From Rutstroemia sp. NJR-2017a BVV2 (Eukaryota > Ascomycota > Leotiomycetes > Helotiales > Rutstroemiaceae): DNA of 64,000 bases. Under the pieces are notes generated by a model, which was given only the letters and a program-made list of their open reading frames with translations, searched no databases and was not told where the DNA came from. The first letter of the stretch is position 1; each line of letters opens with the position of its first letter. This document shows positions 42,749 to 51,128 of the stretch, in pieces. Both the position numbers and the translations under genes were made by a program. Location of the stretch: positions 310,001-374,000 of the forward strand of contig NJPS01000024.1 of the NCBI GenBank assembly GCA_002946415.1, in the 5' to 3' direction.

Positions 42749-43402
42749 CTTTGGAAGCTTCCTCTTAACTTGTATGCGAACGTCGGGGTAGTTTCTTCTA
42801 CCTTTGCAATATCGTTTCGTTCGAACCGGCTCACAGGTGCTCACTTATAATAATTTAGTATTTCGTCACGATAGTTTGCAGCAATTGATTGTGAAAATGT
42901 AGATCTTTTAACGGTCAATGTACAGTAATGTCGTTTGCGCTCAAAATATGTAGTGGGGCCGTGGTCTCAGGAGAATTGCATGCTAAATTTGGGGTACTTG
43001 TGCATTTGAGGCTAAAGTGCGCTAATAAAGAGTCTAGACCAATCAGTGGGAATATCGATGCCAAGATAAGGGGGGGAAGGTGCAAGGCTACGATTTCCTA
43101 CCGCGGCTTTGAAAATGCGCAAACAAATATGTTCTATGTAAGTTATCCTAGATATAGTAAAGTTCGAAATCGGCTTCAGTTCCAACTCTTAATGATTTTA
43201 TTTATGACCTACATTTTATGCCACACTAACCATTTAAAGTGTCACGTGTGGGTTGGAAATCTTACTTTGTATAAGAAGCACTGATAATACATGCGACGAC
43301 AAGGGTGCCTCCTCAGCCGCAAAAGCCTTAGCCTCGACCGGAAACAACGTTCGAGCATGGCCCTGATGATAATCCACATCTCAACTCTACAATCACACTG
43401 TC
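42749..43402. other. Divergent upstream region ArfGAP / ankyrin gene
   Basis: About 650 bp. It contains the left arm of the inverted repeat (43151-43236). A 118-codon ORF (42928-43284) overlaps that repeat and is not supported. Confidence 0.45.
43151..43236 (+). repeat. Left arm of 85-bp inverted repeat flanking the ankyrin gene
   Basis: The segment from gatatagta to accattta reappears in reverse complement at 47577-47661. A core of 27 bp (ttcgaaatcggcttcagttc and on to caactct) is identical; the remaining 58 bp differ at about a dozen positions, many of them C/T or G/A transitions. Similarity stops sharply on both sides. It sits 167 bp before the ankyrin ATG. Confidence 0.8.
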
Positions 43403-46400
43403 ATGGATCCATTAAGTACGACTGTAAGCATTATTGCTGTGCTTCAGCTTTCGAGCTCGGTTTTGAAGTACTTAGTCGATGTAAAGGGCGCGCCGAGAGA
43501 TCGCAACAGCCTTATCCGCGAGATCAGCTTTACCCGTGGAATTCTTAGCACTCTTAACGAGAACGTGAATAATGCAGGAGTATACGACAAGACTTGGTCT
43601 GCGACTATTCGATTGCTTGAAGATCCAGACGGCCCGTTATGTACGCTGACAAGGACACTACAACAATTAGCAACGACACTTCAAGCTTCAGCTTCGGCAA
43701 CAGGCTTCCAAAAAGCAGCGAACTCACTTCAGTGGCCCTATAAGCAGAAAGAGGCGGAGAAGATCCTGAGAATTATCGAACGTCAGAAATCTATGTTGCT
43801 TTCAGCTCTAGACAATGATCATATCGCAATTCGAACTCCACAAGTCGATCAAACGTAAGTTTAGGTTACAAATCCTTATTTCCTAACCTATAAGCCTTGA
43901 TTGCTAACGAACGGCCTTATTTCTGCAGTCCGGAGACGCCGCTATGGTGGGCGGCCCGGAACAGCAACACGGCTATGGTTAAGCTACTACTCGAGGCCGG
44001 TGCGAATGTCGAGTCGAAGGATAGCAATAGTCAAACGCCGCTATGGTGGGCAGCCCGGAACAGCAATATAGCTATAGTTAAGCTACTACTCGAGGCTGGT
44101 GCGAATATCGAGTCGAAGGATAGCAATGGTCAAACGCCGCTATGGTGGGCAGCCCGGATCAGTAATACGGATATGGTTAAGCTACTACTCGAGGCCGGTG
44201 CGAATTTCGAGTCGAAGGATAGCAATAGTGAAACGCCGTTATGGTGGGCAGCCCGGAACAGCAATATAGCTATAGTTAAGCTACTACTCGAGGCTGGTGC
44301 GAATATCGAGTCGAAGGATAGCAATGGTCAAACGCCGCTATGGTGGGCAGCCTGGATCAGTAATACGGATATGGTTAAGCTACTACTCGAGGCTGGTGCG
44401 AATATCGAGTCGAAGGATAGCAATAGTGAAACGCCGCTATTGCGGGCAGCCCGGAACAGCAATATAGCTATAGTTAAGCTACTACTCGAGGCTGGTGCGA
44501 ATATCGAGTCGAAGGATAGCAATGGTCAACCGCCGTTATGGTGGGCAGCCCGGAACAACAATATAGCTATGGTTACGCTACTACTCGAGGCTGGTGCGAA
44601 TATCGAGTTGAAGGATAGCAATAGTCAAACGCCGCTATTGCGGTGGACCAGGAATGTGGATGCCTTACGGAACGCAGTCGAACGATTCGACGTACAAGCA
44701 GTGCAAAATTTACTTACCCAAGCTTTCACCGACGTAGCAAGAGATAATTTTAAATGGCTCCACGAGCTTGTAGAAATAGGCTACAAGTACCAAGATATTG
44801 CAAACCTCCTCATGGACGAGAAGAAAGACTCACCATGGATCTTAATCGAGCCTCCAGAAAGATCCCAGTCCACCATTATAGTGGACCTCCACCAACCATT
44901 TTGCGTTCATCAAGGCGGAAATGAACTCACCTTCTCGCCGAAATTGGTTGCCGAGGATGAAAGTATTCTCCACACAGTTGACTGCTCGAAATCCGATCTA
45001 CCGGGACTAGACTCAATCAAGCGAAAGGTTGCGGCCTCTTGTGGGCTTGCTGGAGTTATCCCAGTCTCAAGCGACCGTCAAGAGTGGATAGGTTCTGTGG
45101 CATTTGATGTCGATGATTCAGCGGTCGCATCTGTGGCCTACGAGCTTGATCTATCTCATACCCCGTCTACTATTCAGGACTGCTTGCTACGGGTAGAGGC
45201 GGCGCTTAATCGACTAGTCCACATCATTTCGTTGCTTCAGCAGAATGGGTTGTGCTGCAACAGTTTCACCACATTGAAGTTATTAGCAGAAGTAGAACGA
45301 GTAGAAGTCATTCGGGTTCCATTCTCGCTTATTTCACATCTTGTTGAAATGGTTTCATGCCTTCAATCAACTGAAAGGAAGCGAGAAACACTCATTTCGG
45401 CCTTAGAGGTTGCACAGGAAATTCTGGGTCTGGTCTACGGCGTGGAAAGAGACGAAGTAACCCCTTTCGATTTGCAAACCCTGGATATGGAAAGTGCGGA
45501 GAGAAGTACAGTTCACAACTGCGCTCTGGCCACTCAAAGCCTGTGTCTTGGACTTCTATCATATAGTAATGCACACGCTGGTCCGATACAGCCGTTCTTT
45601 CTCAACCACGCGCTGAAAAGGGTCAAGCTCCTAGGGATCGCAATGCATCTCCCGAATAAACAGTGCCTTTCCGCGGAACTTGTGGAGCTCACGTGTTTTG
45701 GCCAAATGATTGGCAATGCCGTAGTGGCCTTTGCTTGCACCAAGAAGCCTATACACTCTCGAAAATATGATCTCTTGGCCTCACCAGAAGACCTCATTGA
45801 CACCTGGGGCCCTGGACGCTTCGTTATAGATCGTTCATCAACCGAAGTCAAGCGGCTGCGTGCCGTCGAAATCGGAGGTGGCATAATCCGGCCTACAGCG
45901 GAGAACGCAAATCTCTTCCATTGGGACAGGGCCTTCCTTAATTATGAAAATTTAAGAACTCGATTTGATTTCCATACCAAGATAATCATCGCCGCCACAA
46001 AACTGAACGAATCATGCCCACTTGATCAATCTCAAATATGGAAAGGTTGCATCGCTCTCAAAAATCTAGGAACCTGTCAAGATTACTGGCGACTCGCTGA
46101 GATACAAGCTGGCTCTCAAGCCGGCCAGTACGTTATTCTTCAATTCAATAAAACGTGGGTGAAGCAAGATGGCATTACATTAAAAGATTGTCAATTGAAC
46201 GCTGCTCCTGGTACAATCTATCTACCATTTCTGGAATCCTTCTGGGGGCTTCAAGTAAGCCTTTGCACTGGTATAGCGCGAAGAGTACTCGTCCGAGAAA
46301 TGTTGGCCGACGTCATGACAGCATACGTTGAGAATCGGCTTCCTGTCCCAACACTGTGGAAAGACCTGTTGAAAGACCACAATATTTTGGGTCATTTCCG

Positions 46401-47064
46401 GAAGCCTAATCTAAAGACCTGGTTTCAAACACTGTCTCCCGAATTGCAGACGCTAGTTGTTCAAATTGTTCGCTATATCCTTGGGATCTTGGGAGACACG
46501 GGATATAATAGACAGAACGATGAGCTTGTCATTGCTTTCCCGTCCCCAGAGGATCCCTTCCGCTGTTTTCGGATTCCATGCAAAAATGATCAACACCTTT
46601 GGACTAGAGCACTCGCCGACTCTGAAGTCTGTGCGACATATGCGTACATTACACCAAATTGCTTGGAGACGGATAAGCAGAAGTGTCAGAAGTCTTCTGT
46701 TGCGCGGTGGCGAAATCGAGCTGTTTCGCTTGACACCGCAGTGTGTCAGCACAAATCAAGCAAAGAAATTCAAGATCAAGCCGTCACTTGGAATCTCAAA
46801 CCCGGCATTCTATATTGGATAGGGAAACCCGGCACAAATCTCACAGCGAAAGTTCTGATGCCCACCGCACAGTTGGAGATGCTGCCCACTGCACAGTTGG
46901 AGATGCGACTGTCTATTACTCGAAGCTTGATTCCAGAGAGCTTTCTAAGGAGAATTTCAAGCCTTCAGAAGATCCCGATGCAAAGAATTCGTGAGAAGCA
47001 GCAAAGCACGGATATTAATGCAACCCAGGTTTTAATCTTACCAGCACAAAAGTCCGATTCCTAA
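43403..47064 (+). CDS. Large ankyrin-repeat protein with fungal STAND-type N-terminus
   Basis: Exons 43403-43854 and 43929-47064; 1195 residues. Residues 1-150 (MDPLSTTVSIIAVLQLSSSV, VKGAPRDRNSLIREISFTRG, LLSALDNDHIAI) match the helical N-terminal domain common in fungal NLR/STAND and ankyrin proteins. Seven almost identical 33-residue ankyrin units follow (TPLWWAARNSNIAIVKLLLE, AGANIESKDSNGQ), then a unique 800-residue C-terminal region with WGPGRFVIDRSS and WKGCIALKNLGTCQDYWRLA that I cannot name. No NB-ARC/NACHT P-loop is seen. Such proteins are linked to fungal incompatibility or immunity by analogy only. The gene lies between two arms of an inverted repeat. A 24-bp in-frame duplication occurs near the end (46858-46905). 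Confidence 0.85.
43936..44628 (+). repeat. Seven tandem 99-bp ankyrin-coding units
   Basis: Seven contiguous 99-bp units each start at acgccg(c/t)ta (the last at ccgccgtta). DNA identity between units is very high, including synonymous positions (aagctactactcgaggc is almost invariant). Units alternate between a 'NSNIAIVK' and an 'ISNTDMVK' version, giving a 198-bp higher-order period. This points to recent duplication or gene conversion rather than old repeats. Confidence 0.92.
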
Positions 47065-48236
47065 TTCTAGTGCTACAGGATTAGTATTTCTTAGTCTGTT
47101 AGGGCCAAAAGTTGACTTCACTAACACGTTACACCGTGAAAGTGTAGCGCGCATCCATGAATAGAGCTAACGTCTTGGCAATGTGGCTTAGCTTCAAATT
47201 CCCAAACTATTCAAGGCGGAAGCCGATTCGCCAGCGACTATACTGCAGAGTACACAGGAGGAGTTGTCAGCGCCAAAAATAGATTAGGTGGTCTGTGCAT
47301 ACCTTTCCGTTTATGCGAATTAGGACGAGGCCGATGTTTGCAAGTAACTGTATTGCTCGGGTGGTATTCTGAGCTTGCCGTTCTCCTATGGAGCAGCACA
47401 ATGCGCAAAGGGGCACAAAGGTGGATGACACAATTAAAGAGCCGGAATCTGCCTTCGGTCAGCCGAATAGCAGGAGTCAGCGTATCTGCCGACATCGGTT
47501 GATCCTTGTGCAGAAGCCTTCACATTCATACCAGTAAGGAGATAAGCTAATACAGGGTCTGGTAGTAAGCTAGCCATAAATGGTTAGTATCACATAAATG
47601 TGGGTCGAAAATAAAATCATCGAGAGTTGGAACTGAAGCCGATTTCGAATTCTACTGTATCAATCTGACAAGAGACAAGATGTAAGAGGTTTACATAGTT
47701 ACAAGTAACATCATCACGTATAAATAAGTATGCACAATCACAAGTTTTCCAATCCCAATACTATTGTCTACTCCACCATCAATCATAACGATAGGTATCA
47801 TCAATCATTAATCAGTAACTTTTCCATTCCTCCATCCCATGGAAGCACATCAGAAAGAAATCTAGTGTACACACCAAAGAATGCCAGTGAAATGGTAATA
47901 AGACATGGTTTTGGAAAAAGTGTCGTAAAGAACTATGAAACCCTACTCGGGTTGAAAAGTTAAGTCTGTCAGGATAAGAAAGAGCATGAGAGCTCATAGA
48001 TCTATTTAGACGCCATTAACAAGTCCGCCCAGAGTGTGATGACATGTCCACCTAAAATGAAAATCGTCGAGTAGTCGGTCGGTTCCCTGGTAAAATCCCA
48101 ACAAACGATCCACCTTCCACTCCTAAGTGCTCCCACAAACCGCCGACAATGGTCCAAAAGCAACGCATAGCAATGCATCTGTTTACTGCCTGCGACTGCA
48201 GCACTTTCGTCATATACATCGTACAATGACCTCCAC
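47065..48236. other. Intergenic downstream of ankyrin gene
   Basis: About 1.17 kb between convergent genes. Contains the right inverted-repeat arm (47577-47661). A minus-strand 85-codon ORF (47495-47238) starts about 80 bp inside that arm and could be a remnant, but it has no recognisable domain. Confidence 0.45.
47577..47661 (-). repeat. Right arm of 85-bp inverted repeat flanking the ankyrin gene
   Basis: Reverse complement of 43151-43236 with about 85% identity and a perfect 27-bp core. It lies about 510 bp after the ankyrin stop. The arms and the DNA between them span about 4.5 kb. Confidence 0.8.
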
Positions 48237-49592: not shown

Positions 49593-51128
49593 GATGATAG
49601 ATTGAAGTTGTGGTGTGGTAGGTTGGAACTGAGTAGAAGCTTGAAGTTGTGTGTAAAATTGATCGACGTTCGCTGAAAGATTTTTGAATTTCTCTCTGAA
49701 CAAATGGGGGAGTTGTTGAAAGGGTAGCTAGGTGCCCTAGTGGTCTGGTTTTTGGGGGGAGGGAGGTTGGGTTGAGGTTGTTGTTGTGGGTTGGCACGAT
49801 CTTGTTCTCGAAATTGGGATGTTGTCAAAAGGAAAGGGAGGGAGGTTTCGATTGCGCGTGCGGTAAGAATATATCGAAATTACTTAGCATGAGAGCTGCC
49901 GCAGTTTAGCGAGGGCGCACTTTACCGTAAGCGGTTTAAGGCGGTGGATTAAAAGCAGGGCTGGAACTCGAAATTTGCCTTATCTTGAGGGGGGCGAGAG
50001 GGTCGAGAGGGTTATCGAGCCCATTTGTGTGGAATCCGAGTAAAAATCTCACTAAAAAGCACGAATATTTACCAAATATTTACCAAACATTTACCGAATA
50101 AAGGTGGCACGATGCTTCGATAGTCCTATTATTCTGGGTCCGGAGCATAGGAAGATACAGCATGATAGGATGGCTGCGATCGGACGAACCTGAAAAGTAT
50201 GGGGAAATTGGGGAAGGAGTCACTGTCGCCAAGGCCGGCCAAAGATAGGACCATCAGTAGATTTACAACAATGCTCACTCCGGCAGCCAGGTACGAGAAC
50301 AGAACAGCGAACAGAGAACAGCGACCAGAGAACGGAGAGCAAAACAGAAAACAGAGAACAGAGAACAGACAGCAGAACAGAAAACATTAGACTTCTCATT
50401 CCCATTCTCAAGACAACGAGTACATACATGCAATCTATTCAGCGCCCAATCATGTGTTATCTTGCTTCACCGTCTCTAGTCCATGAAATACTCATCTCTT
50501 TCCCCAACGTTAAAATTCATGCAGGAGAAATTACAGCTGGCTCTCACCGTACCACTGTGGCTTTCTCGACTTCAGAGTGCGTGCTGCGTGCATATCTTGG
50601 GTACATCATCATGTGTCACCGTTACACTCTGAATATTTGATTGTAACACCTCTGCTAATGTTCCTGCCCATTCTCTTTGTCCTCGGGCTCTTTTGTTTCT
50701 GCTTCTCGCACAATGCATTGTCCCAGCACCAGTGTCACTGCGCAAGGCTATCTGGTTTCAAGGTTATGGTTGTCGATGCCACCTGGGATTTTCCGTGGCC
50801 TTCGGAAATATTTCGAACAGTATCCATGACCTTCAAGGGCCAAGCTCCTGCTCGCCACGCCCGCTCTGTAAGGGGTTCTTCGGGTAAGCACGACAATGCT
50901 GTGACAAAGCAAAAGGGGAAATTCGCAGCCTTGTGGGCAATCTCGTGACTGCCAATGTTGTGTTTCTTTGATGACTGATGACACAAACGAGAAAGAACGA
51001 AGAAAAATTGATTTCTTATCGGCGACTTATCGGAGCTGAGCTGCCACAGGACGTGGTTTCCCACAACCAACATCCGGCGACAAGATATCTGTAACAATTA
51101 CTCGAAAGAGATAGAATACCAAAACCAG
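49593..51128. other. Divergent upstream region RNP gene / TAH18
   Basis: About 1.5 kb. Besides a minisatellite at 50295-50386 it holds only overlapping short ORFs. The strip 49590-49800 is the RNP gene leader and is GT-rich. Confidence 0.45.
50295..50386 (+). repeat. gagaacag minisatellite
   Basis: About 90 bp of degenerate copies of gagaacag/aaaacag in tandem, in intergenic DNA. Ordinary simple repeat expansion. Confidence 0.75.

What the first reader, a model, noticed from the sequence alone, without database searches (positions are those of the whole stretch)
43151..47661. Ankyrin gene enclosed by an 85-bp inverted repeat
The two arms (43151-43236 and 47577-47661) share a perfect 27-bp core and about 85% identity, and similarity ends abruptly at both sides. 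Between them lies exactly one gene, an ankyrin protein with a STAND-type N-terminus and recently expanded repeats. This could be a cargo-carrying non-autonomous element, a duplicated promoter pair from an inverted gene duplication, or two copies of a short dispersed repeat. Many mismatches are transitions, as RIP leaves. A mobile immune-like gene would be a notable case.
Basis: partly seen in the sequence, partly recalled or inferred. Interest (0 to 1): 0.75.

Follow-up and report, generated by a model that had tools for sequence, protein, structure and literature searches.

The report
Ankyrin gene inside short transposon ends
In a fungus (Rutstroemia), a single ankyrin gene sits between matching transposon-like ends, and the same kind of ends lie around or beside other, unrelated self-recognition-type genes in the genome, which suggests, but does not prove, that small DNA transposons carry such genes one at a time.

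Summary
The inverted repeat is real: 73 of 87 aligned bases match, with a perfect 27-bp core, and each arm ends in CAGT (left TAGT) with TA outside, like ends of a Tc1/mariner-type element. The genome is Rutstroemia sp. NJR-2017a BVV2. The arm is not a high-copy repeat: it finds 4 non-redundant places, forming two inverted pairs (a lower bound). The general terminus finds 24 non-redundant ends at 20 loci, control 0. Three pairs (window, C39, C14) have TA on both sides and hold one gene each: ankyrin, kinase, HET. A fourth, untidy pair holds another ankyrin gene. Several single ends point at HET, HET/TPR, TPR, HET-ankyrin or NACHT-ankyrin genes. But two ends close after 257-260 bp without a gene, and 14 of 20 loci have no partner found. 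No transposase with these ends, no empty site and no second copy of a cargo was found. Best reading: an old, non-autonomous TIR element carrying a whole ankyrin gene, in a family that often bounds immune-like genes. Biased insertion of short elements beside such genes is a serious rival. Movement of the gene is inferred, not shown.

The parts
43153..47659 (.). whole element with its TA on both sides (element proper 43155-47657)
43153..43154 (.). TA outside the left end (presumed target duplication)
43155..43236 (+). left terminal inverted repeat; first 23 bp (43155-43177) are the conserved terminus
43403..43854 (+). exon 1 of the ankyrin gene (N-terminal region, weak PigL_N-like match)
   Evidence: junction supported by P0001
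43855..43928 (+). intron (GTAAGT...CAG)
43929..47064 (+). exon 2: ankyrin repeats, then about 800 residues without a Pfam match, and the stop codon
43936..44646 (+). 99-nt tandem ankyrin units
47577..47657 (-). right terminal inverted repeat; first 23 bp (47635-47657) are the conserved terminus
47658..47659 (.). TA outside the right end (presumed target duplication)

Best explanation
The interval 43155-47657 is an old, non-autonomous DNA transposon about 4.5 kb long. Its ends would be recognised by a Tc1/mariner-type transposase supplied from elsewhere, or now lost, that cuts the unit out and pastes it at TA. Instead of a transposase it carries one complete two-exon ankyrin gene of the kind found in fungal self/non-self recognition repertoires. 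It is one member of a family in this fungus: other pairs of the same kind of ends hold a HET gene, a protein kinase gene or another ankyrin gene, and further ends lie at the edges of NLR-like genes. Shown: the paired ends, TA on both sides of three pairs, a different gene in each pair, and more immune-like genes at the ends than a rough background predicts. Inferred: the type of transposase and its action in trans, that the unit moved together with its gene, and that the gene works in recognition.
For: Inverted pairs with TA on both sides around different genes: window ankyrin, C39 Pkinase (E 5e-19), C14 HET (E 3e-32); a fourth pair on C25 with another ankyrin gene. Terminus pattern 30 matches at up to 2 mismatches, control 0. 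TA outside 15 of 22 non-redundant matches of a pattern that does not spell TA. Conservation drops after position 23. None of the eight outer arms of the four pairs has an inner partner within 900 bp (P 0.05 to 0.98), against two short copies that do (P < 0.004). Under random placement of 24 ends, three or more inward pairs within 6 kb occurred in 0 of 20,000 simulations. One gene fills each of the three clean pairs.
Against: No empty site, no autonomous copy, no transposase with these ends (only the two transposase genes near ends were read), no second copy of any cargo. 14 of 20 loci have no partner found, also where 6-10 kb inward were read. The arms of the pairs are 84% alike or less, so the copies are old and a decayed arrangement can mislead. 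The C25 pair has TT, not TA, on one side and an extra end inside.
Confidence: 0.56

Rival explanations
1. The ends belong to short MITE-like elements that insert preferentially in repeat-rich, fast-evolving neighbourhoods where immune-like genes lie. The ankyrin gene was never cargo: two such elements landed on either side of it and their inner ends decayed.
For: Two of 20 loci are such short copies (257 and 260 bp, TA on both sides), one with HET genes within 2.5 kb on either side (C31). Most other ends are single. LINE ends lie 4-12 nt outside five ends. The genome is rich in HET, ankyrin and TPR candidates (247, 615 and 277). An HET gene lies on the outer side of the C72 end.
Against: It needs the inner ends lost at both arms of the window, C39 and C14 pairs, while the outer ends, the inverted orientation and TA are kept; no such inner ends are seen. 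In the eight loci with 1.5 kb seen on both sides, immune-type Pfam domains are inside in 5 of 8; outside, ORFs read by eye showed none in 8.
Confidence: 0.33
2. The terminus is a host sequence, such as a boundary, regulatory or recombination signal that marks the edges of recognition genes, not the end of a transposon.
For: It lies near different genes of related function and mostly singly.
Against: It occurs upstream as well as downstream of genes, is followed outward by TA, and also bounds 257-260 bp units without a gene.
Confidence: 0.06
3. The arms are a duplicated promoter or gene edge left by an inverted gene duplication.
For: Only the inverted similarity of the arms.
Against: No further similarity beyond about 85 nt, and the same kind of ends surround unrelated genes elsewhere.
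Confidence: 0.02

Closest known systems
Non-autonomous Tc1/mariner-type elements and MITEs of fungi (mimp, miniature impala)
   Same: TIRs that begin with CAGT (recalled for impala/mimp; the impala-like copy in L076 also begins CAGT), TA on both sides, no transposase inside, and a link to a functional class of genes: mimps lie in promoters of Fusarium effector genes (PMC3599309, title and start of abstract in the listing).
   Different: The window copy is 4.5 kb and encloses a whole gene, and the linked genes are immune-like, not effectors. Two relatives are short and MITE-like.
Starships (giant cargo-carrying elements of Pezizomycotina)
   Same: Carry ankyrin, HET and NACHT genes as cargo (PMC9594970, passages read).
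   Different: Starships are far larger, up to about 700 kb (PMC12134995, start of abstract in the listing), and are defined by a DUF3435 tyrosine recombinase. The window unit is 4.5 kb with one gene and TA-flanked TIRs.
Pack-type elements (for example Pack-MULEs; recalled, no call)
   Same: Host gene sequence between transposon TIRs without a transposase.
   Different: Here a complete gene rather than a fragment, in a TA-inserting family, and repeatedly from immune-like classes.
Fungal HET/NLR/ankyrin recognition repertoires (such as HNWD genes of Podospora)
   Same: Same gene classes; repeats of high identity within the gene (HNWD family and RIP: PMC1805685, passages read).
   Different: The window protein has ankyrin repeats but no NACHT or NB-ARC domain. 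The passages read describe no TIRs around such genes.

Membership tests
Tc1/mariner superfamily (non-autonomous member) | terminal inverted repeats with a sharp outer limit | tested here: met
Tc1/mariner superfamily (non-autonomous member) | TA target duplication | tested here: met
   TA on both sides of the window, C39 and C14 pairs; one side only in the C25 pair
Tc1/mariner superfamily (non-autonomous member) | an autonomous relative with DDE transposase between the same ends | tested here: inconclusive
   23 DDE_1 and 26 DDE_3 matches listed; the two near an end have other TIRs; the ends of the others were not read
Tc1/mariner superfamily (non-autonomous member) | empty sites or presence/absence between strains | not testable with these tools
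   no relative's genome is held for this fungus; protein lists only hint at patchiness
MITE (mimp-like) | short and without coding capacity | tested here: not met
   window copy 4.5 kb with a 1,055-aa open frame; two relatives of 257 and 260 bp do fit
Starship | DUF3435 tyrosine recombinase captain and large size | tested here: not met
   4.5 kb with only the ankyrin gene among its long open frames and no recombinase in the Pfam scan of that gene
NLR/STAND protein | NACHT or NB-ARC domain in the window protein | tested here: not met
   Pfam finds ankyrin only

The most novel reading that the evidence does not exclude
Rutstroemia has a family of small TIR transposons, moved in trans, that act as single-gene shuttles for immune-like genes of unrelated kinds (ankyrin, HET, HET-ankyrin, HET/TPR, NACHT-ankyrin, kinase). 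They would spread and reshuffle the fungal self/non-self repertoire one cassette at a time, perhaps between species: a small-scale counterpart of bacterial defence cassettes and of Starship cargo.
Probability: 0.28. Interest if true: 0.85.

Novelty: new variant of a known kind. Interest (0 to 1): 0.6.

Why it matters
How fungi assemble and renew their large, patchy sets of HET, NLR and ankyrin genes is open. Starships are known to carry such genes in bulk. A TIR family that bounds single genes of several unrelated immune-like classes would be a second, much smaller vehicle and could explain presence and absence gene by gene. It is directly testable, because it predicts TA empty sites in sister strains. 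If the link is only insertion bias, the ends would still be a useful landmark for immune-like genes, as mimps are for Fusarium effectors.

Tried and rejected
Rejected: high-copy dispersed repeat (4 non-redundant places for the window arm, 2 further-related pairs of places for the C25 arm; both lower bounds by the tool's own note); inverted duplication; chance (reversed-pattern control 0 + 0).

Withdrawn on the way: I first counted the aegerolysin gene (C50, 17 kb) and the C31 HET gene as cargo; two searches showed that those ends close after 257-260 bp, so both genes are outside. The DDE_1 gene next to the end at C12:198584 and the DDE_3 gene at C34:1270835 were tried as autonomous partners; the ends read beside them are of other kinds. 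I hoped that a LINE cut by an end would give a paralogous empty site. The LINE similarity stops a few bases before the end and the search listed no resumption on the other side; in nine other stretches fetched at the LINE's 5' end, read by eye, no such end lies beside it. No empty site is claimed. A 2.7-kb partner at C43 (TATAGT...AAATCGGTCTC) was considered and not accepted: the gapped scan gives it no support.

Led nowhere: AlphaFold2 model of the C-terminal region (mean pLDDT 32; no fold search was run); relatives in viral contigs (none confirmed). Ten paper searches: searches gave 0 papers; others gave listings in which I saw no title or abstract start about single-gene TIR carriers of fungal HET/NLR/ankyrin genes; two papers were opened at passages. 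Absence from print is claimed only for these searches of an open-access library.

Full report
WHAT IS THERE. The window is C17:310001-374000 of a 43.4-Mb assembly in 79 contigs, which holds the 6,001 nt around the element a second time, base for base, on C75. The best match to the ankyrin protein is labelled Rutstroemia sp. NJR-2017a BVV2, with a contig length of 433,555 that equals C75; the taxon lies in Helotiales. The two arms agree in 73 of 87 aligned bases (11 transitions, 3 transversions, one gap) and contain the perfect 27-bp core. The right arm ends in CAGT, the left in TAGT, each with TA outside. One two-exon gene fills the space: its ATG is 248 nt from the left end, its stop 593 nt from the right end. 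It encodes ankyrin repeats and about 800 further residues that match no Pfam family. Its N-terminus resembles PigL_N only below threshold. Pfam finds no NTPase domain.

THE ENDS ELSEWHERE. The 86-bp arm finds eight places, four after removing duplicate contigs: both ends of the window element and both ends of a second inverted pair, C25:626286-631462. The 20-bp core with up to 3 mismatches gives 17 matches against 5 for the control. A 23-bp pattern without TA gives 26 against 2. The pattern TACAGTNNNNTNNNAAATCGGCTTC gives 30 matches at up to 2 mismatches against 0, and 74 against 28 at up to 3. The 30 reduce to 24 ends at 20 loci once six matches on the duplicate contigs C74 and C75 are dropped. 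Conservation falls off sharply after position 23 (18 ends). Of the 22 non-redundant matches of the pattern that does not spell TA, 15 have TA outside.

PAIRS. Long inverted pairs: the window (ankyrin, 4.5 kb), C39:90607-94304 (Pkinase, 3.7 kb) and C14:99112-101700 (HET, 2.6 kb), all with TA on both sides; and C25 (ankyrin, with a tail that reads like CorA by eye, 5.2 kb) with TA left, TT right and an extra end inside. None of their eight outer arms has an inner partner within 900 bp (P 0.05 to 0.98). Short pairs: C31 (257 bp) and C50 at 17.5-17.8 kb (260 bp), both with TA on both sides.

SINGLE ENDS. At the other 14 loci no partner was found, though at several only 1.5-4 kb inward were read. 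Domains on the inner side: HET and TPR at C12:198584 and at C17:384188 (10 kb past the window); HET at C43; HET and ankyrin in one 664-aa frame at C78; TPR at C4 and C77; NACHT_N, NPHP3_N and ankyrin at C50:639940. A three-mismatch end at C51:120935, not among the 20, also has HET inside. Not immune-like, or unclear: C73 (ABC transporter), C54 (alpha/beta-hydrolase-like, E 0.08, below cut-off), C12:313450 and C29 (no Pfam match in the frame tested), C6 (AT-rich interior, GC 23% overall, no frame of 110 aa), C72 (interior GC 12%, no frame of 110 aa; a HET gene on the outer side); C11 stops at the contig end. No partner was found in 6-10 kb at C12:198584, C43, C78 and C17:384188, nor up to 645.5 kb at C50:639940.

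HOW STRONG IS THE LINK TO IMMUNE-LIKE GENES. Of 20 loci I dropped four: the window (it prompted the search), the two short pairs and C11 (no data). Of the 16 left, 8 have HET, ankyrin or TPR within 3 kb on the inner side (C25, C14, C12:198584, C4, C43, C77, C78, C17:384188). The background of 4.6% is my rough upper figure (about 500 loci x 4 kb / 43.4 Mb), guessed from the candidate counts, whose lists are capped; it is not a permutation. At 4.6% P is 2e-7, at 15% 1e-3. In eight loci where 1.5 kb is known on both sides (C12:198584, C4, C12:313450, C43, C50:17 kb, C54, C77, C78), an immune-type Pfam domain is inside in 5 of 8; outside, ORFs read by eye, without a Pfam scan, showed none in 8. 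Against this, HET genes lie on the outer side at C72 and on both sides of the C31 short copy, so part of the link may be neighbourhood.

MOBILITY. Nothing shows a jump. No transposase with these ends was found: 23 DDE_1 and 26 DDE_3 matches are listed, the two near ends were read and belong to elements with other TIRs, the rest were not read. Relatives of the ankyrin protein over most of its length are a metagenome protein (84%) and proteins at 63-71%, of which only the lichen Xylographa is named (P0002-P0019). Rutstroemia WRK4 and Clarireedia appear among the 120 listed with matches over 22% of the query only, and Rutstroemia BBW does not appear, while a flanking aldolase is 89% identical in BBW and 86% in Clarireedia. 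That fits movement or loss, but it is weak: the strain's own HET protein of the C14 pair is also missing from the list of its relatives, so these protein lists are incomplete.

VERDICT. I think it about 85% likely that the arms are ends of a TA-inserting TIR family, and 56% likely that the window interval is one non-autonomous copy that carries an entire ankyrin gene. The rival that short elements settle beside immune-like genes keeps a third of the weight, because most ends are single and short copies exist. What would be new is the combination: small TIR units with one gene each, from several unrelated immune-like classes.

Noticed in passing
L067:6597-9882 (C17:380597-383882), 10 kb past the window end: A gene with HET and TPR domains lies on the inner side of another copy of the terminus (C17:384188, minus), on the same contig as the window element.
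   Followed up: partly
L009:3777; L056 about 1490; L071 about 50; L057 about 1529; L069 about 54: LINE sequence stops 4-12 nt outside five of the ends (two different LINE stretches). Nine other stretches at the LINE 5' end show no such neighbour, so a LINE with a taste for these ends is only a guess.
   Followed up: partly
L074 (C31:140869-141123) and L057 (C50:17545-17800): Short copies of 257 and 260 bp with degenerate inner ends and TA on both sides: MITE-like relatives without a gene.
   Followed up: yes
L057:457-975 (C50): An aegerolysin-domain gene lies just beyond the 260-bp copy.
   Followed up: no
L009:7995-8963: An extra end inside the C25 pair, 0.97 kb from its right end; the right end lacks TA and borders another repeat, so this locus is probably nested or rearranged.
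   Followed up: partly
C6:68314-72000 (L069) and C72:479800-483460 (L072): The inner sides of these two ends are very AT-rich with RIP-like dinucleotide indices and no long open frame.
   Followed up: partly
C17/C75, C25/C74, part of C50/C74, C8/C37: The assembly holds matching stretches twice, so raw match counts are inflated.
   Followed up: partly
L076:173-1540 (C34): An impala-like Tc1 copy (TIRs beginning TACAGTGCCCC, DDE_3 transposase in two frames); an end-like match of our terminus lies 70 bp outside it.
   Followed up: yes
window 50281-50386: Imperfect 12-14 nt purine-rich tandem repeat (GAGAACAG-like).
   Followed up: no
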